Shown: positions 11,966 through 45,726 of the stretch, in pieces
Numbering within the stretch: the stretch's first letter is position 1
Layout of the letters: each line of letters begins with the position of its first letter
NCBI GenBank assembly: GCA_002049455.2
Contig: KV919010.1
Span: 55,738-119,737, forward strand
Length of the DNA: 64,000 bases
From: Porphyra umbilicalis
Lineage: Eukaryota > Rhodophyta > Bangiophyceae > Bangiales > Bangiaceae
Reading direction: 5' to 3'
The notes under the pieces: model-generated
Databases searched by the model: none
The model's input: the letters and a program-made list of their open reading frames with translations, nothing else
Told to the model about the DNA's origin: nothing
Position numbers and translations under genes: made by a program

Positions 11966-12235
11966 CCCTCTCCGCCAGCGTCTGCCCTCTCCACCCGCGT
12001 CGGCCCTCTCCACCCGCGTCGTCCCTCTCCGCCGGTTTCGTCCCTCTCCGCCCGCGTCGGCCCTGTCCGTCCACGTCGGCCCTGTCCGCCCGCGTCGTGC
12101 CTCTCCGCCTTCTTCGCCCCTCCCCGCTCGCGTCGCCCCTCTCCGCTCTCGTCGCCCCTCTCCGCTCGCGTCGCCCCTCTCCGCGTCGCCCCTCTCCGCC
12201 GGCCTCGCGCCTCTCCGCCCGCGTCGTCCCTCCCA
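11966..12235. repeat. 19-bp minisatellite, about 13-14 copies
   Basis: The unit is close to CCCTCTCCGCCCGCGTCGT, repeated with substitutions and one shortened copy. Because 19 is not a multiple of three, all three frames cycle through the array. This makes long but meaningless Pro/Arg/Ser frames on both strands and blurs the 5' end of the adjacent transposase frame. Confidence 0.8.
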
Positions 12236-12488
12236 CGGGTTTGTCCGAGTGCCTACCCCCTCCTCGCCCTCGTCGGCAAAGGCCTCGTCGTCGCCGCTCG
12301 ACGAAGTGGGCATGTCGACGACGACGACGGACCGGGCGGCGACCGACGCCGTCTCATCCACGTCTTCGGGGTCCACTGCATCCACGACACCGTCGACTTC
12401 ATTCGACCTGCTCTCTTCCACCGCGGTGTCCGCCTCGACAGGGTTCACCTCGTCATCTTGCAGCACCAGCGGGGCGGACGGCGGAGTT

Positions 12489-13556
12489 ATGGAAGCGCCG
12501 ACGTCTGAGTCGACCGTTTGTTGCGCGGCGTGCGCGGCGGCGCTGATGTTCTCCGAGGAGACACGTCAACACGTGCTCGGCCTGCTCGACGAGCGGTACC
12601 CCGCCGTCGACGTAGCTGAGATCATCGGCTGCTCCAGGCGCTCTATGCGTAGATGGATGCGCATTTTCGAAGAGAACGGGACGGTTTGGCGAGACCCCAG
12701 GCTTCGCAACCTCCACGCTGATGCCGCCATCCGCAACCCACACCTGGCGCGCGCCATCCTCACGCTCGTCGAAAAAGAGCCGGCCGCGTTCCTGGGCAAC
12801 TACGTGGATCTGCTCGTTGCATTGAGCCTCGACTAACCCGCTAGTGACAACCGGTACGTGAGCGCCGCGACGGTGTACCGCGTGCTGCGCTACCACCAAT
12901 ACACGTGCAAGAAGATTGAGAAGCTATACGCGGAGAGCTCACTCGAGGCTCAACGCGCGTTCGCCGCCATGATCGACGAGATCCCACTCCGGTGCCTCGT
13001 CTCGTGCGACGAGACGCACACGTCAGGCAGCGACATGCTCCCCCGCTACGGGCGCTCGCGAAAGAATGTGCCGTGCGTGCTGCGGGACCGGGACACCCGC
13101 CCGCTCAAGCGCACCAGCACGATGATGGCCGTGTCCCTGGCGCACGGGGTCCTCTGGTCACAGACGGAGATCGTGGGCAACTAACAGACGGCGGACGATC
13201 GGCGTTTATTTCTACAATGTCTTCGTTCGCAGATGAACACCTACATTCCCGGTCTCGTACTGTACGACAACGCGAGCATCCACGACCATTGGGGAGATGA
13301 GTACATGCAAGCAAACGGCATCCATTATGTACACTTGCCTCCATACTCGCCCAACTTGCAGCCGATTGAGGGCGTTTTTGTTGAGATGAAGAAGCACGTG
13401 CGGTCGCTCGTGTACGAAGACGGACGGTACATGGACAAGCCGTTCCACCTCATGGCGGCAGCAGTCGGCATGATCACCACGGCGCAGGTGGCGTGGCAGT
13501 TTTCACGTGTCTCGCATGAGATCTCCCGGCTGCTCACTGTTGTGCCTCCCACGTGA
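12489..13556 (+). pseudogene. Tc1/mariner-like transposase with two in-frame TAA stops
   Basis: One frame carries the whole protein but is interrupted by TAA at 12834-12836 and 13182-13184. Homology continues uninterrupted on both sides (LVALSLD-stop-PASDNRYVSAATVYRVL; EIVGN-stop-QTADDRRLF). The order is an HTH (VAEIIGCSRRSMRRWMRIF), a linker, then the DDE_3 catalytic core: VSCDETHTSGSD and GRSRK, LVLYDNASIH, and PPYSPNLQPIEGVF. The three acidic residues are retained, with 33 residues between the second Asp and the Glu. The start is uncertain because the open frame runs upstream through a minisatellite; the ATG at 12489 is the nearest one before the HTH. Related to the minus-strand gene at 44.2-45.3 kb but clearly diverged. 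Confidence 0.85.
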
Positions 13557-13603
13557 CTTCTTGTATGATTTTGTGCTGCTATATTCAATTCTTGGGTGGG
13601 TGA

Positions 13604-14977
13604 TTAAAGCAACATTCTTCCCTGTTCTTGGCAATTACTGCTCATCCCTGCGCCACCTGCAGCACAAGCAGAGACGACGCTCGGGCCAATCACGGTAGAC
13701 TCGGTGGGGTCCTGCTGGTGCTCCACGTCGACGCCGATGTCGGCAGCTACAGGCTGCACCAGCATCCAGGTGGGCGGCCACCAGACCGCCGCCGCAACCA
13801 CCACCAGCGCGCGCGAGCACACGCCGCACAACTGCACCTCCGCCGCCGCCGTCGCGTCGTTGCCAATGACAGAGGCCACGCGCTGCACCAGCATCCACGC
13901 CAGCGGCGGCGGCATGACCGCCGCCGCAACCACCACCAGCGCGCGTGAGCACGCGCCCCACGACTGGACCCCCGCCGCCGCCATCGGGCCGCCGCCAATG
14001 TCGGCGGCCACGTCCTACCCGAGCATCCACGTCCGCGGCGGAATCACCGCCGCTGCAACCATCACGAGCGCGCTCGAGCACACGCCGCACAACTGCACCC
14101 CCGCCGCCGTAAAGTCGCCGCCAACGTCGGCGGCCACGCGCTGCACCAGCATCCACGTCAGCGGCGGCAGCACCAACGCCGCAACCACCACCAGCGCGCG
14201 CGAGCACACGCCGCACGACTGGGCCTCCGCCGCCGCCGTCGCGTCGCCGCCAATAGCGGCAGCCACGCGTGGCACCAGCATCCTTGTCAGCGGCGGCGGC
14301 ATCACCGCCGCCGCAACCACCATCAGCGCGCGCGAGCACACGCCGCACAACTGCACCTCCGCCACCGCGGTCGTGTTGTTCCCAATGTCGGCGGCCACGT
14401 GCCGCACGAACATGCACGTCGGCGGCGGCATGATTGTAACCGCAACCACCACCAGCGCGCGAGAGCACACGCCGCACGACTGCACCTCCGCCGCCGCCAT
14501 CGCGTCGCCTCCAATTTCGGCGGCCACGCGTGGCACCAGCATCCACGTCAGCGGCGGCGGCATTACCGCCGCCGCAACCACCACCAGCGCGCGCGAGCAC
14601 ACGCCGCACAACTGCACCTCCGCCGCCGCCATCGCGTCGCCGCCAAAGTCGGCGGCCACGCGCGGCACCAGCATCCTTGTCAGCGGCGGCGGCATCACCG
14701 CCGCCGCAACCACCACCAGCACGCGCGGACACACGCCGCACAACTGCACCTCCGCAGCCGCCATCGCGTCGCTGCCAATGTCGGCGGCCACCTTCTGCAC
14801 GAGCATCCACGTCTGCGGCGGCATTACCGCCGCCGCAACCACCACCAGCGCGCGCGAGCACGCGCAGCACGACTGCATCGCCGCCGCCGCCAATTCGCCG
14901 TCAACGTCGGATGCGACAATGGACGGCGTCAGAGCCGTGGTTGTCGCCGCGGGTGCCGCGGACACGAGAAAATGCAT
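13604..14977 (-). pseudogene. Hypothetical 44-residue-repeat protein, one in-frame stop
   Basis: Starting at a genuine ATG (14977) just outside a tandem array, this frame reads through nine ~132-bp units to a non-repetitive C-terminus (VDVEHQQDPTESTVIGPS) ending at 13604. One TAG at 14015-14017 interrupts it; other units have CAG there. The consensus unit is about GGDAMAAAEVQLCGVCSRAL followed by VVVAAAVMPPPLTWMLVPRV, so each unit has a Cys-x2-Cys pair and a hydrophobic stretch. Nearly all unit-length differences are multiples of 3, which suits coding. However, a plus-strand frame (13704-15164, no ATG start) and another minus frame are also open across the array, and substitutions do not decide between them. 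No known family is recognised. Whether this is a gene at all is unsure. Confidence 0.35.
13742..14910. repeat. Tandem array of nine 126-132-bp units
   Basis: A recurring landmark (GGCCACG..CACCAGCATCC) appears near 13742, 13874, 14006, 14132, 14261, 14393, 14522, 14654 and 14786. The spacings are 132, 132, 126, 129, 132, 129, 132 and 132 bp, followed by a last unit of about 126 bp. Every spacing is a multiple of 3, as expected when indels are filtered for reading frame. Confidence 0.85.
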
Positions 14978-17184
14978 GTGTCTCTGTCTCGCCGTGGCCG
15001 TTGCGGCGTTCTTGGAACAGGTGCAGCCGCCGCCACGCTGCCGCCATCGTCACCTACAAGGCTTTGTGCCGACACAGACGGCGGCGGGGAGGTGGCCGGC
15101 TTGGAGGTGTCGCACCTCGACACGGCTGCCGCGGCGGCGCCCTGCATCGCCGCCGATGTGGTGAGGTTGCGCGTCCCTGGTGTCTAGGGCAACAGTTCTG
15201 CAGCAGCCCGCCATTCTGGTTGCGTGAGTCCCGAGTGGGGAAGAAGATTTCGGGTTTTTTCTGCTGTGTGATTCGTCGCGTGACAGCAAGTAGCCTGACC
15301 CACTTTCGCCACAACAAATGACCCTGATGCCCTGTCGCTTTTCTCCAGAGACGCAAGCGAACTCAAAGCACTTCACATCGAAATTTACTACGTCATATTG
15401 ATACAACAGGCACCAGTCGGGCGCGAGATCGATGTCGAAAAGACGGGGGCTACTGCGAAATCGTCGCGTACCTGGTCATCAACTGATATTTCATGTGTGA
15501 TTCGGCAGGCAGTGTCGTTTCTATCGGAAAACTCAAAGCGGCAAACCCGTGGACCCCAGAGAACACCTGCAGCACCTCTTAGATGTATGCCCATGAGTTT
15601 CCGCTTTTGGGCTCCGGCAGTCGAACCAGCTGGCTTCCCGTTTCCTTCTCGGGCACGGGCAGATGGATTGGCTCACCGTCGTCGTCGTGTCGTCGTCCCG
15701 TCGTCGCGCTATCGGTGGGAGACCTTCTTCGCGGCGCTGTCGATGGCGTGTCGTCATTGCGCCGTCGTTGGCCTGTCGGTGTTGCGCCGATCTCGGTCTT
15801 TTCCCGTTGGCATACCGCGCTTTGACGGTCGTCGGACGAGCGCGTGCTGTACGTTTGATGCTCTCTGACGCTTGATCGGGCGCGACTGCAACAGTGTTTG
15901 ATCCTTGCCGCTCACACCGCGGCACATGCAGTCAACCTCTATTGGTTTCACGTCACTGATGATGCCTGTAAAGATCAATCGCTGTCAAAGTGTGAGCCGT
16001 GCATGCATTTCTGATCCAGGTTTCGACACTCGGCGGTGCCGGGCAGGCTCGCGCGAGGTCGCGCGGCCGCTCCCTGGTCAGCTTAGGGAGGCGCCGCCGT
16101 CTTCAGGACGACGGCGCCGGCCGAGACGGCGGCGATAGCCGCGGCGGCAGCGGCGTTGGAGCCACGGGCTGTCGGCGGCGGCGTTGAAGCAGGCGCACGG
16201 CCGTCCTCGCACACGGCGGCGGTGGAGGTGGTGGCGGCATCGGCCGGGGCGGCATCGCCGGTTTTGGTGGACACTCCTGTTCTTCCTGTGGTCGCTGCTG
16301 CGCAGCGGACGCCGACGTGGGGCCGGCTGCTGGCTGTACGGGCCGGCAGCTCTCCCGTGGTCGGTCGGACGCCCCCCCTTCCACCCCCCCCCATGTCACC
16401 ACAGACACAACGGGAACGCCTGAGTGCGGGCCCGCGCTCACGCCGTACCGCTCTGAGAACACTGCCTTGACGTGAGTGGCGGCCGCGGACGCGACAGCAG
16501 CACCGCAGTGTGCCGCAGCCGCGTCGGCGGTGTCCATCAGATTGTGCGCGGGGCCGTCCACGCACCTGTCGGCGCGGGTTGGGCGGGCGACGGTGGAGGT
16601 GCCCTTGGTGGCAGCACGAGCGCCGGAAGGCGATGGCGCTCTCGTGGCTGTGGCTGACTAGCGCTCGGGTTGCGTGCAGGCGGCGGATGGGGCCGGCGGA
16701 GCCGTCGGAGCTACGAGCTAAAGACCCATGCGCCCGTCGTTTCTTCTTATTCTGCCCCCCCCCCTCCCCCCCCCCCCCCGTTATTGCTCGCCCAAAAGAA
16801 TATTCGGCGACCCGCGGCGGCTTCTCGTCGAGCACCTCCGTGAGCGTGCACGCGCAGGAAAGACTGCAGCTTCGGAGACGTTAGCGGCGGGGGCGGTGGC
16901 TGCGGGGGCGGCGGGGACGACCTCGGCGGCCCGTCAAGCTTCCCGCTCCCGCAACTCCCCCCCATCCTCTTTTAAGCAAGGCCACAATCCACGCCGTTTG
17001 AAGGTGGTCAAGTGAGTGCTCTGGGATGGTGTAGGATCAGTGGGTACTGTTGTCGTCGTACTTCTCGTCTATTTGGAGCGATTTCTTCTTCCTCTGGAGT
17101 CGCAGGCCAGAAGAAGATTCAAAGACCATCACACAACCCTACATGCTTACGTGACACTCCCCCACGTCCACGCTCCGGCCAACT
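14978..17184. other. No firm gene; GC-rich, multi-frame open sequence
   Basis: 15000-15180 and 16080-16960 are GC-rich with several overlapping open frames. The minus frame 16083-16835 ends in an Ala-rich tail (SNAAAAAAIAAVSAGAVVL) loosely like the Ala-rich tail of the zinc-domain protein at 25.9 kb. It could be a 3' exon of the minus-strand gene(s) upstream, but no exon borders could be fixed. 15200-16060 shows nothing. Confidence 0.35.
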
Positions 17185-17748
17185 TCAGCGATGCTTCTTG
17201 TTGCTGTCGTGGTTTCCGTCTCCTGGAGCACCAGAGCCTCGGCCAAGGCCGCCAGCGACTGTAGAGACGGACGATGGGTTGGCACGTGCGGTGGAAACGC
17301 CGCCGCTACGACGACTGTCAAAACCGCCATGGCGACCCGAGCTCCCGCTGCCATGTTGCCCCGTTCGCGGATGTGGCATCGTCGACGCCTCGCTGGCAGG
17401 AGCCGGCTCGACCGCTATATCGTGCAGCCGGCCGCCCATGGTGCCTGCGCTGAAGTAGGGAGGCTCGACACTGACGACACAGTTGCCGGGGCGCGTGTCC
17501 TCCGTGACGACGACGTCGGGCCCGGGCTTGTCTCGGGCCTGCCGGGGTCGCGCTGCCGGTGCAATCAGCATCGACTGCACGCGAAGGCCGACGGCGGCCG
17601 CCTCTGCTACAAATTGCTCGATACGGGCCATGGCGGCCCGCGGGTCGGCGCGCTCCAGAGAGTCGCGCTCAGAAGGGGTAGGGGCAGGCAGCGGGTTCTC
17701 GTCGGATGAGTTACCATCGCCACTCGGGGAGGTGTGACGGGAAGACAT
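17185..17748 (-). CDS. Hypothetical protein, 187 aa, Ser/Gly/Pro-rich
   Basis: The frame from ATG 17748 (MSSRHTSPSGDGNSSDENPL) gives 187 residues. The ends are disordered-looking (Ser, Gly, Pro, Arg). A central helix-like segment (RAAMARIEQFVAEAAAVGLR) is followed by VQSMLIAPAARP and a mixed-composition part (PGPDVVVTEDTRPGNCVVSV). No family is recognised. It lies 476 bp downstream of, and on the same strand as, the zinc-domain ORF at 18.2-18.6 kb. It could be a separate gene or a downstream exon of that one; the larger paralogue at 25.9 kb also has a long low-complexity region after its zinc domain. The frame is open for a further 83 codons upstream but without an ATG. Confidence 0.35.
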   Translation of the reverse strand: MSSRHTSPSGDGNSSDENPLPAPTPSERDSLERADPRAAMARIEQFVAEAAAVGLRVQSMLIAPAARPRQARDKPGPDVVVTEDTRPGNCVVSVEPPYFSAGTMGGRLHDIAVEPAPASEASTMPHPRTGQHGSGSSGRHGGFDSRRSGGVSTARANPSSVSTVAGGLGRGSGAPGDGNHDSNKKHR

Positions 17749-18224
17749 GATAGTCACAGTGGCCGTTGTGGTCCCTGCCAGTGCGGGGAGGGGTGTGCTC
17801 CCGGGTAATGAGGGCATGGGGGCGGTGAGTGTGCGGCGGAGGCAGCGATGACGAGCACGACTCGCAAGAGAACAAACGCGTGCAGCGCGGCGCAACGCCT
17901 TGCCAGAGGTGCAAACAGACCACAAAGCAACCTGGCCTGGTTTCGTGATGGTTGAAACACGACAGACGAGTGGACACTCGCAAGATCGCAGAGCCACGGC
18001 AATGAGACAAAGGCCCTGCCGACTTCGATCCGTTCCGACTTCGATCTGTCAAATCGTCAAATGCCAACCTAGGCTTCACCATGCTGGTGTCTTGAGTCGC
18101 TGGGATTTTTTCGCCCCGACGTTTTTATGCAGCAGACGGACAGCACCCTTCAAGTGAAGAAAAAATAATGATGAGAAGCACGCACTGCGCCGCTGAAGAA
18201 AAAAAAAGTGAAGAGAGAATCACG

Positions 18225-18602
18225 TCATCGCTCAGAGAGAGCGAGGTCATGGACGGCGGCCACCATGCGCCTAGCTTGGCGGTCGCCCACCAATGGACAC
18301 ATAAAGTCAATGCCAGTGATGATGGGCACCTCTAGCGACGCAAGGGGATCGACCCTGCCGTGAGGCAACCTCCAGCGAGTCGGACGCAACGCGAGGGAGT
18401 GGCTAGTATGACCAAGCAAACCGCACACGGCACACTGCTTCGCGTGGGAACATGTCTCCGACAGACATGGTCCGGGAGGATAAAAAGGGTGCTCATTGGA
18501 GACGTGATAACGGCACTGCAGGTGCCGCCGCAACGGGCATCGGAGAGCTGTGTGACCTTGCACACCAGGCGTGGCCACAAAGCGACAAGTCAGGCACGTC
18601 AT
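18225..18602 (-). CDS. Small protein with an unrecognised 12-Cys/His domain (paralogue of 25.9-28.1 kb)
   Basis: The ATG at 18602 begins MTCLTCRF directly at the domain. Potential ligands are C3, C6, H17, C22, C30, H38, C46, C51, H53, C57, C60 and H65, with signature blocks RCPLR, QCR, EHPF, PPGPC and CAVCGLLGH. The N-terminal region of the protein at 25880-28114, counted from its internal Met at 27904, aligns with a single-residue gap and has all 12 Cys/His in register. A further match follows (LALRPTRW versus ALHPGRWK, and DFMCP versus DFVCP). Twelve ligands could bind three zinc ions. The C2-x4-H ending resembles a zinc knuckle without its last Cys. The frame stops after 125 residues, so the gene may be truncated or continue after an intron. 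Role unknown; nucleic-acid or protein binding is only a guess. Confidence 0.6.
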   Translation of the reverse strand: MTCLTCRFVATPGVQGHTALRCPLRRHLQCRYHVSNEHPFYPPGPCLSETCSHAKQCAVCGLLGHTSHSLALRPTRWRLPHGRVDPLASLEVPIITGIDFMCPLVGDRQARRMVAAVHDLALSER

Positions 18603-19699
18603 GACGAGTCGCGGTGTTCCTGAATGGAAAAAAAAAAACGGATCAAACCAATAGGCGGCGACGTAAGGGATACGACCAGCCGGTGGTTGAGACTCTCATG
18701 AGTCAGGTACAGTGCAAAAAACGAAGACGCTTACCCACTCTTGCGAAAAAAGACACGACAAAAGTGGACGTACCGAATGGACCGCACTGCTCTTGGAAGC
18801 GCTATCACCGACGTGGTCCGGGGTCGTCACCCTCAGCGGCGTGGAGTGCGTTGACCCAGCGATCCGTGGCAGTGACGAGAGCTGGTGGTGAATGGTCACC
18901 GAGCGCCCCTCGATGAGTGCTCCTTGGTCATGTGTGTCGCGCGGCATCGAGACCGGAGCCTGGAACGGGTACGCTGGCGGGGGAGATCGTCCAGAGATCG
19001 GCATCGCCGTTTGCATTTTGCGCTCGCAGGGCCCAGTGATGGGGTTTACCATCGGCCAAAGCGCCTTGAATATGGTGAATGCTGATTCAGTGGGTGCTCA
19101 GTGACACTTCGGCTCGCCGAATGGTGATAACCTCTCATGTAGCCTCTCAAAGCAATCGCGATCAGGCACGTCGCTGGCGCAAGCCGAGAACGGCTGCTCA
19201 CTCGCAAGTGGAAATTGGTGACATTTTCAATTCCCTCACGCCATATTCTAAACTCATGGCTTTCTCAGGGGGCTTCTTTCGCCAGAAACGATAAAACAAA
19301 CGGTGCGGTTGGCCAAATCAGTACTGTCCTGTGGTTGGCCAAACTATCGCTGTCAGATGGGGATGAGCGACAATGACGTTGCCGCTTGGGCGCGCTCCGT
19401 GCTTCCCAGAGCGCCATCCAACGGAACTTGCTGCCACCTCCGTCCCATCCCAGTGTCTGCACCAGTGCGGCCGCCGCCGCTACCGCCTCCGAATGGCGGT
19501 TGTGCGGTGTGTGTTTTGATGCGCCCCTCATGACGCCGGCGACGAACCGCTGCCGATGCAGAACCGGCTGAAACGGCGGCAGCGGCGGCGGCGATGGCCC
19601 CCTTGGCGGCGGCCATGGCGTCCCCCTCGGTGGCGATGCCAACGCCCGCGGGAGCCACGGATTCCGCCGCCGCCGAGGCGGCGCAGCCGTCCTGGCGGC
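18603..19699. other. No gene seen
   Basis: Mixed-composition intergenic DNA. A minus-strand open frame at 19353-19775 ends in this region and starts in the Ala/Gly-rich array; its Ala-rich composition makes it unreliable. Confidence 0.4.
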
Positions 19700-20420
19700 G
19701 CAGCGCCGGGGCGACGGCGGAAACAGCGGCTGTGGCAGCTGCGTTGGCAGTGGCGGGCGCGGTGGCGGCCGCCACAGCAGGAGCTGCGGGCTCTGCGGCG
19801 GGGTGGCACCCGTGAGGGTGGCGGTGGTGGTTGCTGCGGTGGCGGCCGCGGGCTTTACGGCCAAGCGCCGCCAGTTGCGGTGACGCTGGCGGCCGCCACG
19901 GTGGCGGCCGCAGGTTTCAAGGCGGGGTGGCGCCGGTGAAAGTTGCGGTGGCGGCCGCCGCGGCGGCAGCTGCGGGCTCTGCGGCGGGGTGGCACCGGTG
20001 AGGGTGGCTGTGGTGGTTGTTGCGGCGGCGGCCGCGGGCGCTCCGGCCAGGTGCCGCCAGATGCGGTGACGCTGACGACCGCCGCGGTGGCGGCCGCGGG
20101 TTTCACCGCGGGGTGGCGCTGGTGAGAGTGGCGAAGGCGGCCGCCGCGGCGGCAGCTGCGGGCTCTGCGGCGGGGTGGCACCGGTGGGGGTGGCGGTGGT
20201 GGTTGCTGCGGCGGCGGCCGTGGGCTCCACGGCGGGGTGGTTGTAGATGCGGTGGCGCTGGCGGCCGCTGCGGTGGCGGCCGCGGGTTTCACGGCGGGGT
20301 GGCGCCGGTGAGAGTGGCGGTGGCGGCGGCCGCGGCGGCAGCCGTGGGCTCTGCCGCGGGGTGGCGTGAGGGTGGCGGGGGTGGTTGCCGCGGAAGCGGC
20401 CGCGGGCTCCGCGGCGTAGG
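19700..20420. repeat. ~186-bp tandem repeat, about 3.5 copies, Gly/Ala/Pro-rich in translation
   Basis: The landmark CTGCGGGCTCTGCGGCGGGG recurs near 19785, 19970, 20156 and, with two changes, 20342, a period of 185-186 bp (62 codons). On the minus strand it reads as repeats of TATLTGATPPQSPQLPPRRP. It may encode a repetitive tail or be a plain minisatellite. It lies directly downstream of the ePHD frame on the same strand. Confidence 0.7.
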
Positions 20421-20610
20421 TCTGTTGTTGCGAGGTGAGAGGCAAGGTGGCTGTGAGGGCTTGTAGGGCACGAGACTGTGCAGGCCGTTCATGCGGGCGG
20501 GCGGTGGTGTTCTGGAAGCTGTGGGCACAGAAGTTGCGGTGGCCAGGAGTGAAAAAACGTCTGCTGTTCTATTCTCGCATCTACTGCGGTCGCTCATCCT
20601 CATGTTTTTC

Positions 20611-22578
20611 TTATCTTTGTGAGGGACCAGGTCGCGATCGCGGGGCACAGGTGACATCTGGAGCCCCACGATCGTTGGAGGGCCCAGCCCGGATGCTTTG
20701 TGCCGCCGCATGATGACCAGCACATGCAACTCCCCCGGCCATACCATCACCGGCTGCTGCCACAGCACCGCCGCCACCTGGTCCAGCATAAGCGCCTCCT
20801 CCGACCATATCATCACCGGCTGCTGCCGCAGCACCGCCGCCAGCTGGTCCAGCACATCCACCACGGGGCGTCTTCCCGCTGCTATCCGTCTCCTTCGCGG
20901 GGGCACGTGGCCTTGTTGGTTGGCCATCGACGACGTGCGGGGAAAGAAAAGTCGGAGGCACTGCAGGCAGCGACCGACGAAAAGTGGGACCTTGATATCG
21001 GCGAATGTTTCGCAGGAGAAACACGGGCGCCCGCCGGCGACGCCCACCGTCGGCGTCGCATGGTGCGGCAAACGATGCCGCTCCCGTGGGTTGCAGATCT
21101 TCTGCGACAGTGGTTCGGAGGGCGATGGCTAGAGCAGAGCGCGGGACTCGGCGCGGCCAATGCCGCGGCGCCAGACGTTCCCAGCGTTTCAGCACTCGCC
21201 GGTGGGGACGAGCAGTGACTGTGACCCACGCAGACTCGGCTGCCTCCGATGCGACACCCCAGACACGGCAGAAGATTGTCTCGGTCTCATTTCGGCGGAC
21301 ACCCGTGATGTGGTAGTTCGGGAAATCGGTGCCCTGCTCTGGATCTCCACCGAGGGCGGCATCAACGGCCGCCGCACGGTCCGACAAAAACGTGTCATCG
21401 GCCGCGTCCGCCTTCATGCGCTGCACGTACGCGTCTTTGTTGGACCTTGCGGCGTGCTCCGGGCAGAAGGCAGCATAATAGTCGTCGTGCCTCACGCGTG
21501 GTCCGTCATTCTGCGGGTTGGCGGCACGCGACGGAGGAGAGCCATAAAGACAGCAGAAGTAATAGACACGCGCGCATTCCTGCACGTAGCAGCCCACAGA
21601 GGCGCCGTTGTCGCCGCACACAGAGCACACGAGACCTCGGCTGCGCTGGTACGCTGACATCACGTTGACCAGTTGGTCCGTCTCGGGGTCATGGTAGACC
21701 TCGGGCGCCCACATCGCGCAGACATGGTGAAAAAAGACATTCTTGCGCATAAACCCCTTAGTGAAGGGGCCAAGCATCGGTGACGACAGCGTCCCGCCCG
21801 TCCGGTTGACTTTCGGGCAAAAATCGCAAGCGCGCTCGGCCTCGTCCGCCTCCGGCTGGACGTCCCCCTTCTTCATTGCCCGTGATCGAGGGCGACGCTT
21901 CGCAAGTCCTTTTCTTCGCTTCTGCGCGCTGCTCGCCGTAGACCTTGACGGCCCCGCGTTGCCCGCCGAGCTGTGGGCAGGACCCTTACCCTTGCCCGTG
22001 TACGGTACCGGCGCCGAGGCGCTCTCCTCCCTCTCCCTCCTGCGCTTGTCGGCAGCGAGCAATCGCAACCACCATGCCCTATCCGCCCTTTCCGCCCTCC
22101 TGGTGGCAACGGACGATGGATACTCAGGCACGCCCGACACCACACGCGGGGGGGTCGGCAATCCGTTCCGCACCGCGTCTGAAGAGCAAAGCGACCGAGG
22201 TGGCTCAATGCGGGGAGGGGGAGAGTCTTGGCGGAGGGGCGTCCGACGTGGCGTACGAGGACGCGCGGCCGATGCGACAGCCGCCTGAGGTGAAGAGGGC
22301 GGCGTGATCAATGATGTCACAGGTATGGCACCTGCTGGGGGATGCTCCGCAGGAGGGAATACGGAGCGCCGAGGCGGCCGCGGCGCCGGCGCCGTCTGAG
22401 CGAGCCGCGGAGAGGCCGGCGGAGACGGCGTCTGAGGGGGCGTCACTTCATGTGGACGCGACCCTCTTGGCTGCCGTGGGCCCGTTCCAGTGGCACTGTC
22501 TGGCACAGGCGAGGCAAACAGAGAGAGCTGACGCAGCACCACAGGCGGGTGCTGGCCAGGGGCTTTTAAATCTGTCAC
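20611..22578 (-). CDS. ePHD (extended PHD) zinc-finger protein, start unresolved
   Basis: Extended PHD domains (C2HC5HC2H, as in the JADE/BRPF/AF10 group) are chromatin-associated modules that bind zinc and nucleosomal or protein ligands. In this frame the domain spans about residues 251-375. It begins CDFCPK, continues FFHHVCAMWAPEVY (H-x2-C, then W as in family members), CSVCGDNGASVGCYVQEC and YYFCCLYGS, and ends FCPEH. Before it are about 230 Pro/Ser/Arg-rich residues including a basic patch (KRRKGLAKRRPRSR). After it is a mixed region (NYHITGVRRNETETIFCRVW) and a Gly/Ala tail with an internal duplication. The open frame begins with a non-ATG codon; the only upstream in-frame ATG before the domain is at residue 235. 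The true N-terminus is therefore either there or in an upstream exon. In the last 300 bp another minus frame (to 21071) also looks protein-like, so an intron near 20.9-21.0 kb is possible. The domain call is firm; the borders are not. Confidence 0.75.
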   Translation of the reverse strand: MTDLKAPGQHPPVVLRQLSLFASPVPDSATGTGPRQPRGSRPHEVTPPQTPSPPASPRLAQTAPAPRPPRRSVFPPAEHPPAGAIPVTSLITPPSSPQAAVASAARPRTPRRTPLRQDSPPPRIEPPRSLCSSDAVRNGLPTPPRVVSGVPEYPSSVATRRAERADRAWWLRLLAADKRRREREESASAPVPYTGKGKGPAHSSAGNAGPSRSTASSAQKRRKGLAKRRPRSRAMKKGDVQPEADEAERACDFCPKVNRTGGTLSSPMLGPFTKGFMRKNVFFHHVCAMWAPEVYHDPETDQLVNVMSAYQRSRGLVCSVCGDNGASVGCYVQECARVYYFCCLYGSPPSRAANPQNDGPRVRHDDYYAAFCPEHAARSNKDAYVQRMKADAADDTFLSDRAAAVDAALGGDPEQGTDFPNYHITGVRRNETETIFCRVWGVASEAAESAWVTVTARPHRRVLKRWERLAPRHWPRRVPRSALAIALRTTVAEDLQPTGAASFAAPCDADGGRRRRAPVFLLRNIRRYQGPTFRRSLPAVPPTFLSPHVVDGQPTRPRAPAKETDSSGKTPRGGCAGPAGGGAAAAAGDDMVGGGAYAGPGGGGAVAAAGDGMAGGVACAGHHAAAQSIRAGPSNDRGAPDVTCAPRSRPGPSQR

Positions 22579-22802
22579 ATTTTATAGAATCAGAATATAC
22601 TCCACTTGCCCTAACATGCACTCAGATATGAGTTTTCGATGATGTCATGTATCTGAATTCGGATACGACCGCGTTGGTTGGAGTAAGGATCAGCATTATA
22701 TTCGGATATGTTATCGCTCCGATTTTGATTTTACTCTGTGTACCTAGAGTGAGTATATTCCTTCCGAGGACGTTTCTGCATAAATAGGGATCGGCGCATG
22801 TA

Positions 22803-23202
22803 TTGCTGATCCCCGAATTTTGTCCTGGGGGACAGAGACAGAGACTGACTCTGAATAAGAGCACTCTATTGGTTTACAGCGACAGTAAAAAAGGCATCGA
22901 AGCCAATAGAAATCCTGCATTCGGTACCAGGACCTTGCATCCAGCAGAACTCACTGTTTGTTGCCGCTTGATCCGATTTTCTTGGCACGGAGCAAGCTGC
23001 CCACGCGAGATCTTGAGATTTTCTACTGTCTCCTTGCCAAATGTGCAGAAAATTAGAGGAGCTGATGTTGATTTCCAGGCTGTATGGGCACATGTAAGCA
23101 ATCAGGAGCACCAAGTCAGTCCCAGGGGCGCATCTGATTGGTGGAGAGAGTCGGTCCGTAAGTCAGTCTCTGTCCACCAGGACAAAATTCGGGGATCAGC
23201 AA
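22803..23202. mobile_element. 400-bp MITE with ~37-bp TIRs and TA target duplication
   Basis: Both ends begin TTGCTGATCCCCGAATTTTG and match for 27 bp before the first difference, then continue GGACAGAGAC. TA flanks both sides (22801-22802 and 23203-23204). No coding capacity. The TA target suggests Tc1/mariner-type mobilisation. It lies upstream of the ePHD frame in that gene's orientation, so it could influence that promoter. Confidence 0.88.
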
Positions 23203-23204
23203 TA

Positions 23205-25879
23205 CCAGCGACAGATTGTCCGACGATGCCGCCAACAAAGTCTGGCGCCAGCCAACGTACGTTTTGAGCTGGTCTCAATCTCCTGGGAAACTGGAGTTGT
23301 ATGGTGTACCTGCACAATTTCAGCGTGCATACTAAAAGCTACAATCTCGTCATCGGCCACCGAAAGAATTTTGGTGCTGCGGGCAGTGTTCCCAAGACAC
23401 GACGAGTGCTCGCCGGGGTGCAAAAGTGGTCGACCCCGGATGGTGTTGTGACAGCAAAGAGGCGCAGATTTTATGCGTCGAGAAGCAGGGGGGCAGGGCT
23501 GCTCCTCACGTGAAGAGGATATGATCATGATGCGGATACCCAAAAAATTTCACGTCGTGGTCCGGGCATCCGGCTCGGGTGTGGCAGACACATTTCCCTC
23601 TTAGTTGCGAAGGTCCGGCCATCATCGCCGAGCTGGTAGCCAACATTGGCATCTTGTTCGCCTGCGGCGTCGCAAGGGCTGCCCCAAAATGCTGTTGTAG
23701 CGCACAGCCGAGTCCGGGAGTCGGATAATTCCAGGCAAAATATCTGCAATCTGATTACATTATATCCCGCCCTCGGAGAATTATTAAGGCACATTATAAT
23801 CGTCGGTGCATGGACAGAGTACATTAAGAATACGCAGCTACGGCATGAATATGGATATATCCGAGTATACTGTGCGGATATATCTAGCTCAACTTTATCC
23901 ACCTCAGCCCCTGGTGCTGGCGGCCCGACACTGGAAATGCTGCCTGCTGCAGAAGCAGCAACAGCCGTACGAGCTGCGCCTGGTGTCCGCCCGCGACGCG
24001 GACGCCAAGCCGGGTGACAACACGGGGACAGCGACGGCTCGTGCAGCGTGGCCGCGCCGCAGCACTCACCGACGGCAGCGGCGGCGCCAGCAGCGCCAAC
24101 AGCGGCGCCGCGCCCGGTTTACCTACTCCGCGCCACGCCTCAACGGTGGAGACGCCACCGGCAGCGGCAGTGGCAACAGCGGCGCCTCGAGCCGCGTGGC
24201 CGCGCCGCGCCACGCACCAACAGCCGCGACGACGCCGTCAGCGGCAGCGGCAATAGCAGCGGCAGCGGCAGCAGCAGCGGCAGCGGCAGCAGCAGCGGCG
24301 TACGCGGCGTGGCCGAGCTGCGTAACGCCCAAACGGTGGCGACGGTGCTGGCAGCGGCAGCGACAACAGAAGCGTCGTGCGCGGCGTGGCCGTGCTGCTC
24401 CACGCTGCGACGGTGGCGACGGCGCCGCCATCGGCAGCGAGTGCGGCGGCTGCACCAGCTCGTGCTGCGTCGCCGCGAAGCCAGACGCACGAACACTGGT
24501 GGTGTCGCCCGCAGCGACAGCGCCAACAGCAGCGTCGCGTGCGGCGTGGCCGCACGGTCACGGGCGCCAACGGCACCGACGGCGCCGGCAGCGGCAACAG
24601 CAAAAGCGGCGTGACGTGTGGCGGCGCCGCGCGGTCGCCAGCGCCACTGGTGTCGACGGCGCCGGCAGCGGCAACGGCAACAGCGACGCCTCGTGCGGCG
24701 CGGGCACGCTGCGCCACGTCCCAACGGTGGCGACGGCGCCCGCAGCAGTAGGGCCGACAGCAGCGCGGCATGACCAGGGCCAAGTCATTGTCCGTGCGCT
24801 TGACGAAAACAGTGGTCGTCCTTTACAATGTGACCACGAGCCTCACAGCCAGCGATTGGTCAATATCTCAAACGAAGCCACCGGCCGGCCGCCTCAATGC
24901 CGTGGGGCCGGCGTGAAAGCACGAGCATATGCCCCGCTCCCGTACCGAGACATCGCACTGGCACCAAGGTGTTCGCTGGTAGGCCCGTCGAGGTAGAAGT
25001 GTCGGTCACGCGGCCCTGCGTGCATGTCAAGACAAAATTCAGGCTGGGCTGTGACGAGTGTCCACAGTGCGATGATTGGGCGTCGTCTCTGCGACCCGTG
25101 GGCTGCGTTTAACCCATGAGAGGGCCTCTTGATATGACCGGTGGTGCACCGAGGCTCACACAGGATTCCGTTCCATTCTGGTGGTGGGTGCACAGACACC
25201 TGGAGGACGAGGGTGACTCTTCCATGGATCTCATTTGCCAAGGAACGATGGTCACACAGCGAAGGCACATGGCGAGGAGTGAGAAAAATGTAGGCACACA
25301 GGTCCCCGTGACACGGACCGATGATGACCACCACATGCCTCAGAAAAGCGCAGAGGCCAGACCGGTGGCGACTGGAGCTCAGTCATTCCACGCTGCGGTC
25401 GGGCCGGTCTTGCAGCGGTGTCTGCTGTTATCGTGGAAAAGATGGGTGGGTGGGCGCTCTGGTGGAGACCGATCAGGGCGGGCAGTTCGTGCCCTCCTCA
25501 ATCCAGTGCCATGCAGATTCGATTACTGATGGCCAGTTGATCTCCCTTGTTACTCAAATTTAAAGCCCGCAATCCCTGTCCAATCCCGGAAACGCGTCAA
25601 AGTGGTTGCGTCGTGGCTGCGCCGTCGTCGATCCACCGTCTCAGCTCATGGCACCTCACTGCCAGCGCGGAGCTGGCACCGCACTGCCAGCGCGGAGCCG
25701 GCAGACACGCTGCCATGCAGAAGTCCCATATCTTCTTGGTGCCAGAGCAGGCCACAACGTAGCGTCGAAGCCCGAGACAAGAGGACAAGAATGACGGACC
25801 GAGCAGGCCCCCGTAAAGAAAGAACTATGAATCGGTCCGCAGAAACGACCCTCATGAAGCGACACACGCCCGCGAAAGC
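23205..25879. other. No firm gene; Ala/Arg-rich repetitive core at 24.03-24.77 kb
   Basis: 23205-23880 and 24790-25879 are mixed-composition sequence without a recognisable gene. 24030-24770 is built from irregularly spaced repeats of GCGTGGCCGCGCCGC..CAC and CAGCGGCAGCGGCAAC-type words. These open several frames on both strands (for example 23806-24996 plus, 396 codons) with only Ala/Arg/Gly/Thr content; I regard them as repeat by-products. Confidence 0.45.
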
Positions 25880-28114
25880 TCACACGTCGGTTGGGGTGCT
25901 GGCAATAGGTAACCCCGCCGCAGCTGCAGCCGCAGCGGCCATGGGAGAGAGCTCTGGCACGGCAGCTGCAGGCACACCTGCAACTGCAACGAGGGGCCCC
26001 AACGCGGTCCCGCGCCCGCCAATAAGCGCCACGGGAGGCACGGACGCCGCGGGGGGCGCAGAGGTCTCAGAGGTAGGCGGTGCGAGGCCAACGTGCTCTG
26101 CAGGCTTGGCGGGGATATGCGGCGCCGGACCACCAGCTGCTTGTCGTGCACCACCACGGACAGCGGGGGAAGCAATGGTGACCGCGGCACGAGGAGCAGC
26201 GCCGGCGACTGTAGGAGCTCCGACGATGAGCGCGGTGGATTCGGCGCGAGATGTAAAAGCAGGGCCCCTTCGTGCCTTCGTTTCCGAAGATGCGACAGCG
26301 ACAGCATCAGCCCGACCGGCCCCCACTCCGACCGTCGCTTCAGCAGAGGCAATATTGACGACACGCTGCACCGCGTATGGTATGCTTGGCAGCGACGCCC
26401 GGCGCAGAGCCGACGGCATGGCTGAGCAAAGCCACTCCGAGACCTGGGCAGAAGATAGCGTCCCAGAAGTTAGCGTAAATTCGCGCACCTGCGAGTCCAA
26501 TGCGCGTTTGATGACCACGCCCGCAATATCGGCGTCAACGTCCTCAAGACGACACTGGAAGAGCTCAGCCAGCAAGGCGTGAGCGATGCGAACGGGGGGG
26601 TTGCCCCCGAACCGCGGCGAGACAAAAGCGGGAAGAGTACTCTCGAAGCGCGCACGCGTCTTGTCTGGCCACCCATCATCAAGCACCAAACCAGACTGTG
26701 GGTCCTCCATGTCATCAACGTCGATGGGCGCCGATGAAGCGCCACCATTTTTGCTCCTGCTGGCCTTAGATTTGCCACCGCCAACCTTTTTCGAGCGCAC
26801 AGTCGCCGGAGATGGCCGCTGGCTCTGGCTCTTCGCAATGGCCGCAGCGTACCGGTCCGTCCGACTCTGCCGCCCTGCGTGGTGAGCGCGCGCGGCCTTG
26901 CCGGCGACAACACCGCGCCAAACCTTCCGCATGCTGGTACCGCCAACGCTTTCGCCCTCGCCGCCGCCATTGCCGCCGCCATTAACGCCGCCATTGCCGC
27001 CGCCATTGCCACAGGTATTGCCGCCCCCATCGCCGCCCCGATTGCCGCCCCCATTGCCGCCGCCATTGCCGCCGCCATTGCCACAGGCATTGCCGCCCCC
27101 ATCGCCCCCCCGATTGCCGCCCTCATTGCCGCTCCCATCGCCGCCCCCATCGCCGCCTTGGAGCCGCGTGTTGACGCCGACGCCACGGCCACCACGTCGC
27201 TTGCGGCCTCTGCGGCCGCCAGCTCTGGGGCCCGCCGCGGAGGCCGCCGCCTCGTCCTCCGATGTGCCAAACATGCCGTCGCAGTCGGAGGAGGATGGTG
27301 TCCCGTCGTCGAGACTGCTCTCAGCGGCTGAAGCAGCCAGGCGGTTGGCGGCGACAGCGCCGAGGTGGGCGTTCGAGTACAACGTCTCGAAGGACGCCTT
27401 GTTCTCCTCCTGCAACAGCGCCGCGTTACTGCCAAGACCCTCCATCACCCGCACCGTCTCGTCGATGTCTAGGCGCTCGGCGTTGGTGTTTGCGTGGAGG
27501 CGCGACGTGGCAATACGACGCGTGTGCGCGTCCTCTGCCGCCGTGGTGAACACGCTGGCCGTGTTGTCGACCATGCTCTTAATCGAGATTTTCGTCATCA
27601 TGGGACAGACAAAGTCGTCCGTGGAGAGAGGCTGCTTGTTGGGCTTCCTCACAGGCCGGCCCTTCTTGTTGAACTTCCAGCGGCCAGGGTGCAGGGCCTG
27701 CGTCCCGTACAGGTGCCCTGTCACACCACACGTGTTACACTTCTCCTTGTGAACGCAGAGCGCGCTAACGCACTGGCCAGGCTCACGAAAAGGGTGCCCC
27801 TCAGGCAGCGACCGGCGGCACTGCGTCTGCCTCAGTGGGCACGAACGCGCATTGTGCATCGGTCCATCGGGAGAACTCACATAGTGACAGAGGCTGCACT
27901 TCATGATGGCTGTTTCCGCGTCGCCACCCCCTCGCTGCCTGTAGAGCCAACCGACGCAGTCTGTCCCGGTTACCTCTGTCACTGTCGCGGTGACCGTCGC
28001 GGTGACCGTCGCGGTGACCGTCGCGGTGACCGTCGTCGTCCCGTCACGTTCCGGGCACCGACCACGGTCCGTGTACCGGGCCACGCCAGCTCTGTTGGGT
28101 AACTCATCGCCCAT
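25880..28114 (-). CDS. Protein with unrecognised 12-Cys/His domain, Gly/Asn-rich spacer and C-terminal domain
   Basis: From ATG 28114 this encodes 744 aa; from the ATG at 27904, which aligns with the start of its paralogue at 18.6 kb, 674 aa. Counting from 27904 the ligands are C3, C6, H17, C22, C29, H37, C45, C50, H52, C56, C59 and H64 (MKCSLCHY, SCPLRQTQC, HPFREPGQC, CNTCGVTGH), then DDFVCPMM. Next come a helix-rich acidic part (LDIDETVRVMEGLGSNAALL), a basic stretch (GRRGRKRRGGRG), a (GGGN)n spacer of about 70 residues, a second basic region (SKKVGGGKSKASRSKNGG), and a compact C-terminal region (RFESTLPAFVSPRFGGNPPV ... LLAELFQCRLEDVDADIAGV). The tail is Ala/Pro-rich. No known family is recognised. 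The domain order suggests a nuclear or nucleic-acid-associated protein, which is inference. The 12-bp repeats near the N-terminus (VTAT repeats) make the region before 27904 doubtful. Confidence 0.65.
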   Translation of the reverse strand: MGDELPNRAGVARYTDRGRCPERDGTTTVTATVTATVTATVTATVTEVTGTDCVGWLYRQRGGGDAETAIMKCSLCHYVSSPDGPMHNARSCPLRQTQCRRSLPEGHPFREPGQCVSALCVHKEKCNTCGVTGHLYGTQALHPGRWKFNKKGRPVRKPNKQPLSTDDFVCPMMTKISIKSMVDNTASVFTTAAEDAHTRRIATSRLHANTNAERLDIDETVRVMEGLGSNAALLQEENKASFETLYSNAHLGAVAANRLAASAAESSLDDGTPSSSDCDGMFGTSEDEAAASAAGPRAGGRRGRKRRGGRGVGVNTRLQGGDGGGDGSGNEGGNRGGDGGGNACGNGGGNGGGNGGGNRGGDGGGNTCGNGGGNGGVNGGGNGGGEGESVGGTSMRKVWRGVVAGKAARAHHAGRQSRTDRYAAAIAKSQSQRPSPATVRSKKVGGGKSKASRSKNGGASSAPIDVDDMEDPQSGLVLDDGWPDKTRARFESTLPAFVSPRFGGNPPVRIAHALLAELFQCRLEDVDADIAGVVIKRALDSQVREFTLTSGTLSSAQVSEWLCSAMPSALRRASLPSIPYAVQRVVNIASAEATVGVGAGRADAVAVASSETKARRGPAFTSRAESTALIVGAPTVAGAAPRAAVTIASPAVRGGARQAAGGPAPHIPAKPAEHVGLAPPTSETSAPPAASVPPVALIGGRGTALGPLVAVAGVPAAAVPELSPMAAAAAAAAGLPIASTPTDV
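26966..27165. repeat. GCCGCC-CATT microsatellite-like repeat inside a CDS
   Basis: Repeats of CATTGCCGCCGCCATTGCCG-type words encode the Gly-Gly-Gly-Asn spacer of the minus-strand protein at 25.9-28.1 kb. Its length probably varies between individuals. Confidence 0.7.
27983..28035. repeat. 12-bp tandem repeat (GTCGCGGTGACC), about 4-5 copies
   Basis: On the minus strand this reads as VTAT-type tetrapeptide repeats near the N-terminus of the zinc-domain protein. The frame is kept because 12 is a multiple of 3. Confidence 0.75.
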
Positions 28115-28369
28115 TAGGGCAACGGGCAATGTCTCCTGGGTTTCCACGCCGGAAGGGTCACATCTGAAAGCTTAGAGTCTACCAGCAACCGGCGGTTGCC
28201 GGGCCGAGCTGGCTGTCTGAAATCAGGACTGCAGGTAACGTCTCGGAAGGGGAAGCGCACAGCGGTATTCGATTGCAGATGTCATGATCCCGCGGGCCTC
28301 AATTACCATTGGCTGTGGAGACAATCGAGATCAATTTGGACCACAATCGTGATTAAGTGGTCCGCATTA

Positions 28370-28423
28370 GTTTGGGCAAACCGTGCGTCCCGCAGCGTGG
28401 CCAAATTATAGAAAAGCACCATA
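28370..28423 (-). repeat. Right arm of the 54-bp inverted repeat (partner 10934-10987)
   Basis: 53 of 54 positions match the complement of the left arm. It lies 256 bp beyond the upstream end of the large zinc-domain gene. Confidence 0.7.
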
Positions 28424-45298: not shown

Positions 45299-45726
45299 GC
45301 CAAGTCACAGCCGAATCTCGACCAGATACCGGGATGGATGAGGCCAAGTTTGTGGTTTTAGCCCCCCCGTACAACATGCGTGGTGAGAGCGCAGAAGTCA
45401 GAGGAAGCTCTGGAACTAGAAGTAGACCGTGTAGCTTTGGGAGGCTTGGCCGGCCAGAGCATTCCATAACGCACTGCGAGCGTAATGCGCAGCTGCGCAC
45501 ATGGATTTGCTGCCGAGGCAGTCCCAGTCGCGGTGCCACGCAATTTGCCATGGTATGTGAGACTGCGGGCTTCAAGGAGGCCCCAGGGCGCCCGACCGAC
45601 ACACAGCGCTCCAGACGACAGGCCGACTCTCTGATGCACCTGAGTGGGCCCGCGCATGCAAGGCGGCAACAGCTTCACCACCAGCGGCAATTGTTCCAAA
45701 TCAACAAGACCTGGTCGCGTGAGCCA
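45299..45726. other. No gene seen
   Basis: Flank of the transposase gene; probably its promoter and the element end. No inverted terminus was identified. Confidence 0.45.

What the first reader, a model, noticed from the sequence alone, without database searches (positions are those of the whole stretch)
18225..28114. Unrecognised 12-Cys/His domain present in two paralogous proteins
The ORFs at 18225-18602 and 25880-28114 (both minus) share a ~65-residue N-terminal domain with twelve Cys/His in register and only a one-residue gap: C-x2-C-x10-H-x4-C, QC, HPF, PG-x-C-x4-C-x-H, C-x2-C-x4-H. It then shares (A)L.P.RW and D-F-x-C-P. The spacing is not a PHD, RING, CCHC knuckle or other zinc finger I can name. 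Two copies only 9 kb apart, with different lengths and tails, indicate a multigene family that may be lineage-specific or element-borne.
Basis: partly seen in the sequence, partly recalled or inferred. Interest (0 to 1): 0.72.

Follow-up and report, generated by a model that had tools for sequence, protein, structure and literature searches.

The report
Chromatin-gene-carrying giant mariner transposon
The two zinc-domain genes are passengers of a 17.5 kb jumping gene of the Tc1/mariner kind in a red alga, part of a large family in which many members also carry either a histone-reader-like gene or a Polycomb-type histone methyltransferase gene.

Summary
Both minus-strand proteins share a Cys/His domain (BLASTP 76.6 bits, 35% over 114 residues) with no convincing Pfam, NCBIfam, PDB or IMG/VR relative. 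Twelve ligand positions are conserved, but the 'HPF' His is not one; the DFxC Cys is.

They are element cargo. The window holds a 17.5 kb element (10934-28423) with 54-bp terminal inverted repeats (98%), TA at both ends and a decayed DDE_3/HTH (Tc1/mariner-IS630) transposase. Between lie zinc gene 1, an ePHD gene, zinc gene 2 and a small ORF. Ten compared loci have both zinc genes, nine the ePHD domain. Of 22 ends examined, 21 abut TA. The host is a red alga with at least 162 zinc-domain and 136 transposase loci.

Unexpected: a second clade carries an E(z)-type CXC+SET gene instead: 92 SET loci, none within 30 kb of any of 42 ePHD loci. Zinc gene 1 is under purifying selection (median dN/dS 0.13). 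That the zinc proteins target chromatin partners is inference.

The parts
10934..28423 (.). Giant Tc1/mariner-type element with TA at each end; element proper 10936-28421, 17.5 kb
   Evidence: TIRs, TA at both ends, genes shared with 10 other loci
10934..10987 (+). Left terminal inverted repeat, 54 bp including the TA; inside the TA it reads TGGTGCTTTTCTAT...
   Evidence: 98% complementary to the right arm, 17,382 nt apart; 26-base core in 24 places in the genome with up to 3 mismatches, 0 for the reversed control
28370..28423 (-). Right terminal inverted repeat, 54 bp including the TA
11478..13553 (+). Transposase gene, decayed: three ORF pieces (11478-12833, 12837-13181, 13185-13553) separated by in-frame stops; about 12546-13535 matches the conserved DDE/HTH part
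   Evidence: Pieces. Pfam HTH_23 E 6.4e-7 on the first and DDE_3 E 1.5e-9 on the third; the middle piece was not scanned. 80% identical to the C3 (L015) copy, 2 stops inside. Open homologues elsewhere give DDE_3 E 5e-12 and 6.1e-10
17188..18048 (-). Small ORF (G4); about 75-115 residues shared with 5 of 10 compared units
   Evidence: little constraint, median dN/dS 0.78; no Pfam family
18225..18602 (-). Zinc-domain protein 2 (short, 125 aa)
   Evidence: in 10 of 10 compared units; dN/dS median 0.49 over 11 pairs
20611..22578 (-). ePHD protein (655 aa); zf-HC5HC2H at about 21454-21729
   Evidence: Pfam zf-HC5HC2H E 1.1e-10; best solved relative Jade-1, 32.7 bits, E 3.1e-7; dN/dS median 0.22 over 20 pairs
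25880..28114 (-). Zinc-domain protein 1 (744 aa): zinc domain 27596-27904, Gly-rich linker, second conserved region at about 26358-26892
   Evidence: in 10 of 10 compared units; dN/dS median 0.13 (zinc part, 13 pairs) and 0.14 (C-terminal part, 3 pairs)
22795..23210 (.). Nested ~0.4 kb repeat with 48-nt inverted ends, between zinc gene 1 and the ePHD gene (probably a MITE; not part of the core element)
   Evidence: inverted arms; 90-94% identical copies in the fetched C332, C39 and C51 stretches

Best explanation
Shown: the two Cys/His-domain genes are accessory genes of a giant (17.5 kb) DNA transposon of the IS630-Tc1-mariner superfamily in a red alga: TIRs, TA at the insertion boundary, a DDE_3 transposase with an N-terminal HTH, two zinc-domain proteins and an ePHD protein. 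The family is large. It falls into a clade with an ePHD gene and a clade with an E(z)-type CXC+SET methyltransferase gene; the two were not found together. Inferred mechanism (my estimate 0.35): the transposase binds the TIRs and moves the element by cut-and-paste into TA sites. The zinc-domain proteins are element-encoded nucleic-acid-binding or adaptor proteins, with the conserved C-terminal region of protein 1 as a protein-interaction part, that bring the chromatin partner (an ePHD histone reader, or an E(z) H3K27-type writer) to element DNA, so that each copy sets the chromatin state of itself or of its target sites. The copy in the window is decayed: its transposase carries in-frame stops, so it could move only in trans. 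The confidence below is for the identification, not for the mechanism.
For: TIRs 98% over 54 bp. TIR core in 24 places, 0 for the reversed control. TA at 21 of 22 examined ends (20 of the 22 ends outside the window were fetched, plus the 2 in the window), although the search pattern did not include the TA; the 40 bases shown beyond it are otherwise unrelated, and in the five elements with both ends found (13.5-17.5 kb) I see no longer duplication outside the TA. Ten other loci: zinc 1 and zinc 2 in 10 of 10; ePHD domain in 9 of 10, C51 keeping only the part behind it; transposase in 9 of 10, in the fetched stretch of 7 and on C68 and C94 by genome search, none found on C39. DDE_3 plus HTH_23 above cut-off; catalytic D, D, E with 95 and 33 residues between. 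Association: zinc loci with a transposase within 20 kb 84 of 147 against a null mean of 32.4, maximum 47 in 300 draws; ePHD near zinc 35 of 42 against 10.0, maximum 18. E(z): SET E 5.9e-17 and preSET_CXC E 9.7e-5 (just under its cut-off) in the C50 copy, SET 5e-15 and preSET_CXC 6.5e-6 (above cut-off) in the C5 copy; EZH2 112 bits, next SET kind 56.7. Exclusive cargo: 0 of 42 ePHD loci within 30 kb of a SET locus. Purifying selection across copies. [quoted passage not shown]
Against: No experiment or structure supports DNA binding, zinc binding or chromatin targeting; AlphaFold gave pLDDT 35. No clear array of repeated binding sites was seen near the window element's ends. 25 of 162 zinc, 10 of 92 SET and 4 of 42 ePHD loci have none of the tested partner genes within 30 kb, and 30 of 136 transposases lack all cargo genes within 30 kb: remnants, other arrangements or missed genes. 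One of 22 ends has TG, not TA. No empty site was compared, so the TA duplication itself is not proven. In the C50/C179 element all four ends read GTA, so the exact boundary there is not settled. Zinc protein 2 and G4 are only weakly constrained (dN/dS 0.49 and 0.78; some close pairs near 1), and one close ePHD pair is at 0.56; pairs share sequences and are not independent. No transposase pair fell in the usable dS range, so constraint on the transposase is untested.
Confidence: 0.8

Rival explanations
1. The zinc-domain, ePHD and E(z) genes are inert passengers (captured host genes) that hitch-hike and do nothing for the element.
For: E(z)- and ePHD-type domains are common eukaryotic host domains; a host-like E(z) stands at C76 with no element gene found within 30 kb. 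G4 and zinc protein 2 evolve fast.
Against: Zinc protein 1 (both parts) and ePHD are under purifying selection across element copies (median dN/dS 0.13, 0.14, 0.22); the zinc pair is kept in 10 of 10 compared units; the C5 and C50 element E(z) proteins are 78% alike over 231 residues but only 31% like the host-like one in the SET part, so they are not recent captures of it.
Confidence: 0.2
2. The zinc proteins act directly in transposition (a second subunit of the transposition complex, binding subterminal DNA), and the chromatin genes are a separate matter.
For: Zinc genes are found in both the ePHD and the E(z) clade, so they are more constant than the chromatin gene; accessory DNA-binding proteins are known from other DNA transposons (En/Spm TnpA, recalled).
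Against: Ordinary Tc1/mariner transposases need no element-encoded partner (recalled); no subterminal repeat array found in the window element.
Confidence: 0.3
3. The unit is a host segmental duplication or host gene cluster that happens to contain transposases.
For: Similarity extends over about 15 kb between loci.
Against: Matched TIRs, TA boundaries and unrelated flanks at 21 of 22 ends; C50 and C179 similarity stops at the 27-bp TIRs.
Confidence: 0.02
4. An endogenous virus or virophage-like element rather than a transposon.
For: Size, several genes.
Against: No relative of the zinc domain confirmed in IMG/VR, though only one peptide pattern could be scanned; Pfam scans of the shared genes gave no viral family.
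Confidence: 0.03

Closest known systems
IS630-Tc1-mariner superfamily
   Same: DDE_3 transposase with HTH, TIRs, TA at the boundary
   Different: 12-17.5 kb with several accessory genes; most members are 1-5 kb with one gene (recalled). The Ectocarpus paper gives a 4.4 kb autonomous TcMar element and names KDZ, EnSpm and Sola-1 as its giant superfamilies (passages of PMC12477816)
Giant algal DNA transposons (KDZ, EnSpm, Sola-1 of Ectocarpus; EnSpm of red algae)
   Same: More than 10 kb, accessory genes, among them one that may modify the element's own DNA (ParB-like plus DNA methyltransferase in Sola1-1; passages of PMC12477816)
   Different: Other transposase superfamilies; the cargo there is a DNA methylase, here genes of histone-directed kinds (E(z), ePHD) plus a Cys/His domain not recognised by the libraries used
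E(z)/EZH2, catalytic subunit of PRC2
   Same: CXC plus SET, best match EZH2
   Different: Carried by transposons in dozens of loci; large N-terminal part without a Pfam match apart from a weak trace of MCSS (E 0.0077)
Tc1/mariner with EsV-1-7 domain (TcMar-2_Ec32)
   Same: A mariner element that has taken on a possible zinc-finger domain of unclear function (passages of PMC12477816)
   Different: There fused to the transposase; here in separate genes. The EsV-1-7 pattern differs as I recall it; the Pfam scans listed no such family for the zinc proteins
SETMAR
   Same: SET domain together with a mariner transposase (seen in search listings only)
   Different: SETMAR is a primate host fusion of a SET gene with one decayed transposon; here an E(z) gene is carried by many element copies as a separate gene

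Membership tests
IS630-Tc1-mariner superfamily | DDE_3-type transposase with N-terminal HTH | tested here: met
IS630-Tc1-mariner superfamily | DDD/E triad with about 34 residues between the second D and D/E (spacing rule recalled) | tested here: met
   D, D, E with 33 residues between the last two in the C3 (L015) copy, placed by motif, not from a structure
IS630-Tc1-mariner superfamily | TIRs and TA target site | tested here: met
   TIRs; TA at 21 of 22 ends; duplication not shown by an empty site
IS630-Tc1-mariner superfamily | Small single-gene element (typical, not defining; recalled) | tested here: not met
   13.5-17.5 kb in the five elements with both ends found, several genes
KDZ (Kyakuja-Dileera-Zisupton) giant transposons | KDZ transposase and 8-bp duplication (recalled) | tested here: not met
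   transposase is DDE_3, boundary is TA
CCHC zinc knuckle | C-x2-C-x4-H-x4-C | tested here: not met
   C-x2-C-x4-H present, no conserved fourth Cys at +5; Pfam zf-CCHC 14.6 bits against a cut-off of 20.8 for the window copy
E(z) histone methyltransferase (for the C5/C50 cargo, not the window) | CXC plus SET, closer to EZH2 than to other SET classes | tested here: met
   (CXC above cut-off in C5, just below in C50)
E(z) histone methyltransferase (for the C5/C50 cargo, not the window) | H3K27 methylation in a PRC2 complex | not testable with these tools
   no biochemistry; regions that bind EED and SUZ12 not tested
ePHD (zf-HC5HC2H) | Pfam profile over its cut-off | tested here: met
   42 bits against a cut-off of 29.1
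Polinton/Maverick | RVE integrase, PolB, capsid genes (recalled) | not tested
   no search aimed at these; the transposase found is DDE_3

The most novel reading that the evidence does not exclude
A radiation of giant mariner transposons carries its own chromatin kit: a private Cys/His targeting protein pair plus either a Polycomb writer (E(z)) or an ePHD reader, so that elements write or read histone marks on their own copies to time their activity or pick insertion sites. If so, host and transposon have competed through the Polycomb pathway, with the transposons owning dozens of E(z) loci.
Probability: 0.35. Interest if true: 0.88.

Novelty: new variant of a known kind. Interest (0 to 1): 0.68.

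Why it matters
Mariner elements are thought of as small, one-gene parasites. Here they reach 12-17.5 kb, hold a conserved protein set with a Cys/His domain that no library used here recognises, and carry Polycomb-class or ePHD genes that were not found together. That makes a direct test possible of whether transposons use histone modification on themselves. It also warns that counts of E(z) or SET genes in red algae can be inflated by transposon copies.

Tried and rejected
Tried without result: Pfam, NCBIfam and PDB for the zinc domain; IMG/VR scan, one peptide pattern only, 41 pattern matches and none confirmed; a GTDB scan was not possible, no pattern conserved enough; AlphaFold on the two window domains (pLDDT 35), so no fold search was made; tRNA and Rfam (gathering threshold) on the window, none; a search for repeated binding sites near the element ends, nothing clear. 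Literature searches for such elements (open-licence papers only; listings seen) gave no description; the Bostrychia genome paper, cited for giant red-algal EnSpm elements, is not held, so it could contain something similar.

Considered and rejected: host gene family or segmental duplication (TIRs, TA, unrelated flanks); known zinc finger; virus; KDZ. The first version of the idea, that the ePHD gene is typical of all copies, was dropped when the C5 and C50 elements proved to carry E(z) instead.

Rows dropped or limits: of 24 TIR hits I examined 22 ends; C527 and C537, close to contig ends, were not fetched. Counts from genome searches are lower bounds: only the best 150 candidates of each zinc query were scored. 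In one search the hits new were picked out by eye; for the zinc hits a full recount gave the same 162, for the transposases (136) it was not recounted. In one search I left out 4 of the 22 domain copies then in hand (L013, L014, L017, L023). In one search only pairs with 0.03 < dS < 1.2 and at least 40 codons were used; for even numbers of pairs the median given is the upper one.
Full report
1. Observation. The two minus-strand ORFs are present as described. They share a domain, 35% identical over 114 residues, 76.6 bits. Within the window there are only these two copies. Using 25 distinct copies, twelve Cys/His positions are conserved in 22 to 25 of 25: C3, C6, H17, C22, C29, C45, C50, H52, C56, C59, H64 and C100; the His of the 'HPF' motif is present in only 14 of 25 and is thus probably not a ligand. 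Also conserved are R30, F39, G43, R75, W76, D97 and F98 (18 of the 22 copies then in hand). The domain has no Pfam or NCBIfam family of weight; the best hints are CCHC knuckles at E 0.03-0.04 in a few of 18 members. A profile found nothing meaningful in the PDB (best E 0.33, a TNF-receptor-family chain).

2. Not a pair but a genome-wide family. The window lies in an 83.8 Mb genome of 665 contigs. One domain query gives 150 matches, the number scored, so a lower bound; with a second query from a distant copy there are 162 merged loci. Many contigs show two copies 5-9 kb apart on one strand, as in the window. Comparing the window with ten such places (20 kb each) showed a shared unit: zinc gene 1 and zinc gene 2 in 10 of 10; the ePHD gene in all ten as an ORF match, but in C51 only the part behind the ePHD domain, and C51 is absent from the genome's ePHD list; a further gene on the other strand in the fetched stretch of 7 of 10. 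The genome search puts matching genes also on C68 and C94, 15.6 and 13.5 kb from zinc gene 1, and none on C39. A small ORF (G4) is shared with 5 of 10.

3. It is a Tc1/mariner-type transposon. The further gene is a transposase: DDE_3 E 5e-12 and HTH_23 E 2.6e-8 in the C3 (L015) copy, and the same families in the two of three pieces of the window copy that I scanned. The window copy is interrupted by in-frame stops. The triad reads D, D, E with 95 and 33 residues between. The unit ends in 54-bp inverted repeats, 98% complementary, at 10934-10987 and 28370-28423. A 26-base core of the repeat, searched with up to three mismatches, occurs 24 times in the genome, and the reversed control 0 times. 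The pattern did not include the outer TA, yet 21 of 22 ends examined are preceded by TA, with otherwise unrelated flanks; the exception is in C106. Five elements have both ends found by the pattern: 17.5 kb (window), 16.4, 16.0, 16.3 and 13.5 kb. By eye no longer duplication lies outside the TA in these five.

4. Two clades with exclusive chromatin cargo. Elements with more distant transposases carry another gene. The C50 copy has a 1283-residue ORF with SET (E 5.9e-17), a CXC domain just below its cut-off (E 9.7e-5) and a weak MCSS trace; the C5 copy has SET and CXC above cut-off. In the PDB the best matches are EZH2 (112 bits), ahead of other SET classes (56.7 bits for an H3K36 enzyme). Genome-wide there are 114 matching segments, 92 loci; 82 of 92 lie within 30 kb of a transposase or zinc locus, while none of the 42 ePHD loci lies within 30 kb of a SET locus. 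Among the 119 transposase hits of the first query, the 36 best have an ePHD gene within 20 kb in 27 cases and a SET gene in 0; of the other 83, 52 have SET and 2 have ePHD. Protein 1 of the C50 element shares the zinc domain and the C-terminal part with the window's (30% over 87 residues, E 1.9e-8 for the single comparison); C5 and C50 share the C-terminal part (39% over 116), but C5 against the window gave no match in that part. The C5 element has a second Cys/His gene beyond its transposase, recognised by eye and aligned; the genome searches did not list it. C50 and C179 are two copies of one element of about 12 kb (ends 12.1 and 11.8 kb apart): their similarity stops at a 27-bp perfect TIR (GTATGGCGCTTCC...), and flanks differ; all four ends read GTA, so the TA boundary is probable but not proven in this subfamily. 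The middle of C179 was not read.

5. Chance and selection. Against random positions on the 146 contigs that hold any of these genes (lower-bound lengths, so a conservative null), zinc-transposase neighbours within 20 kb are 84 of 147 (null mean 32.4, maximum 47 of 300 draws), ePHD-zinc 35 of 42 (10.0, 18), SET-transposase 54 of 92 (20.2, 33). Between element copies the zinc part of protein 1 has a median dN/dS of 0.13 (13 pairs), its C-terminal part 0.14 (3 pairs), ePHD 0.22 (20 pairs), zinc protein 2 0.49 (11 pairs) and G4 0.78 (6 pairs); the pairs are not independent. So protein 1 and ePHD seem to be kept working as the element spreads; protein 2 and G4 evolve loosely, with some close pairs near 1. 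No transposase pair was in the usable range.

6. Host. Twelve phycobilisome-linker matches, four of them on contig C665, which carries an 893-residue ORF with three linker domains as in plastid apcE (recalled), and eight on other contigs, mark a phycobilisome-bearing host. The one Rubisco large-subunit gene, on the same contig C665, is of the red type: 1002 bits to 8bdb and 962 to 1bwv (red-algal enzymes, as I recall), 945-958 to a group that I recall as diatom enzymes, and only about 613 to the best cyanobacterial or green-type chains. Together these mean a red alga. Size recalls Bangiales (Porphyra/Pyropia), but that is recall, not a result. A host-like E(z) gene (CXC+SET) stands at C76 with no element gene found within 30 kb; its SET part is 31% identical to the element proteins, which are 78% identical to each other. 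The element E(z) genes thus look like an old lineage of their own; no tree was made.

7. How it probably works. Shown: anatomy, family size, exclusive cargo, selection. Inferred: transposition by cut-and-paste into TA (from superfamily knowledge); zinc binding (from twelve conserved ligands; three sites would fit the number but were not seen); nucleic-acid binding or adaptor function of the zinc proteins; recruitment of an ePHD reader or E(z) writer to element DNA. The pairing of a constant zinc module with an exchangeable chromatin module is the main argument. I give this about 0.35; that the zinc proteins serve transposition itself, about 0.3; that the cargo is idle, about 0.2.

8. Compared with what is known. 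Giant algal DNA transposons with accessory genes exist: the Ectocarpus paper (PMC12477816, passages read) describes KDZ, EnSpm and Sola-1 elements of more than 10 kb, a Sola-1 element with a ParB-like DNA methyltransferase thought to modify the element itself, and cites giant EnSpm elements in red algae (paper not held). In the passages seen, mariner elements are not among the giants. The review of giant transposons (PMC6431247, word search) holds neither 'mariner' nor 'Tc1', though it notes artificial Sleeping Beauty constructs with very large loads. Two papers on PRC2 (PMC9018016, PMC8788455; word searches) mention red-algal E(z) but no transposon-borne copies in the passages seen. My nine answered literature searches found no description of mariner elements with E(z) or ePHD cargo; they cover open-licence papers only. 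I therefore call it a new variant of a known kind.

Noticed in passing
G000 C5, C50, C179 and further loci (L049-L052, L055-L058): Transposon-borne E(z)-type CXC+SET methyltransferase genes: 92 SET loci in one red-algal genome, 82 of them within 30 kb of a transposase or zinc locus; the most striking thing found, although outside the window.
   Followed up: partly
window 22795-23210: A ~0.4 kb repeat with 48-nt inverted ends nested in the element, with 90-94% identical copies in three other fetched loci; probably a MITE.
   Followed up: partly
window 41393-42015 and 54887-55513: Long inverted arms (482 + 151 nt, 80%) about 13 kb apart, with a second DDE_3 transposase ORF (44234-45304, minus; Pfam E 1.1e-9) inside: possibly another large TIR element.
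   Followed up: no
window 2053-3099: DDE_1 transposase ORF (pogo/Tigger-type, as recalled), E 1.4e-31.
   Followed up: no
window 35369-36616 (minus): Plant_tran / DDE_Tnp_4 transposase ORF (Harbinger-like, as recalled), E 9.4e-48.
   Followed up: no
window 45797-46096 and 62785-63084: Two copies of a 300-nt stretch, 97% identical, 17 kb apart; a dispersed repeat.
   Followed up: no
window 13727-14935 and 19759-20378: Tandem arrays of about 130 bp and 62 bp inside the element, outside its main genes.
   Followed up: no
G000 C5 and C482 (L058, L062): An apparent tandem array of about 115 bp on the transposase side, matching itself at many offsets between the two copies.
   Followed up: no
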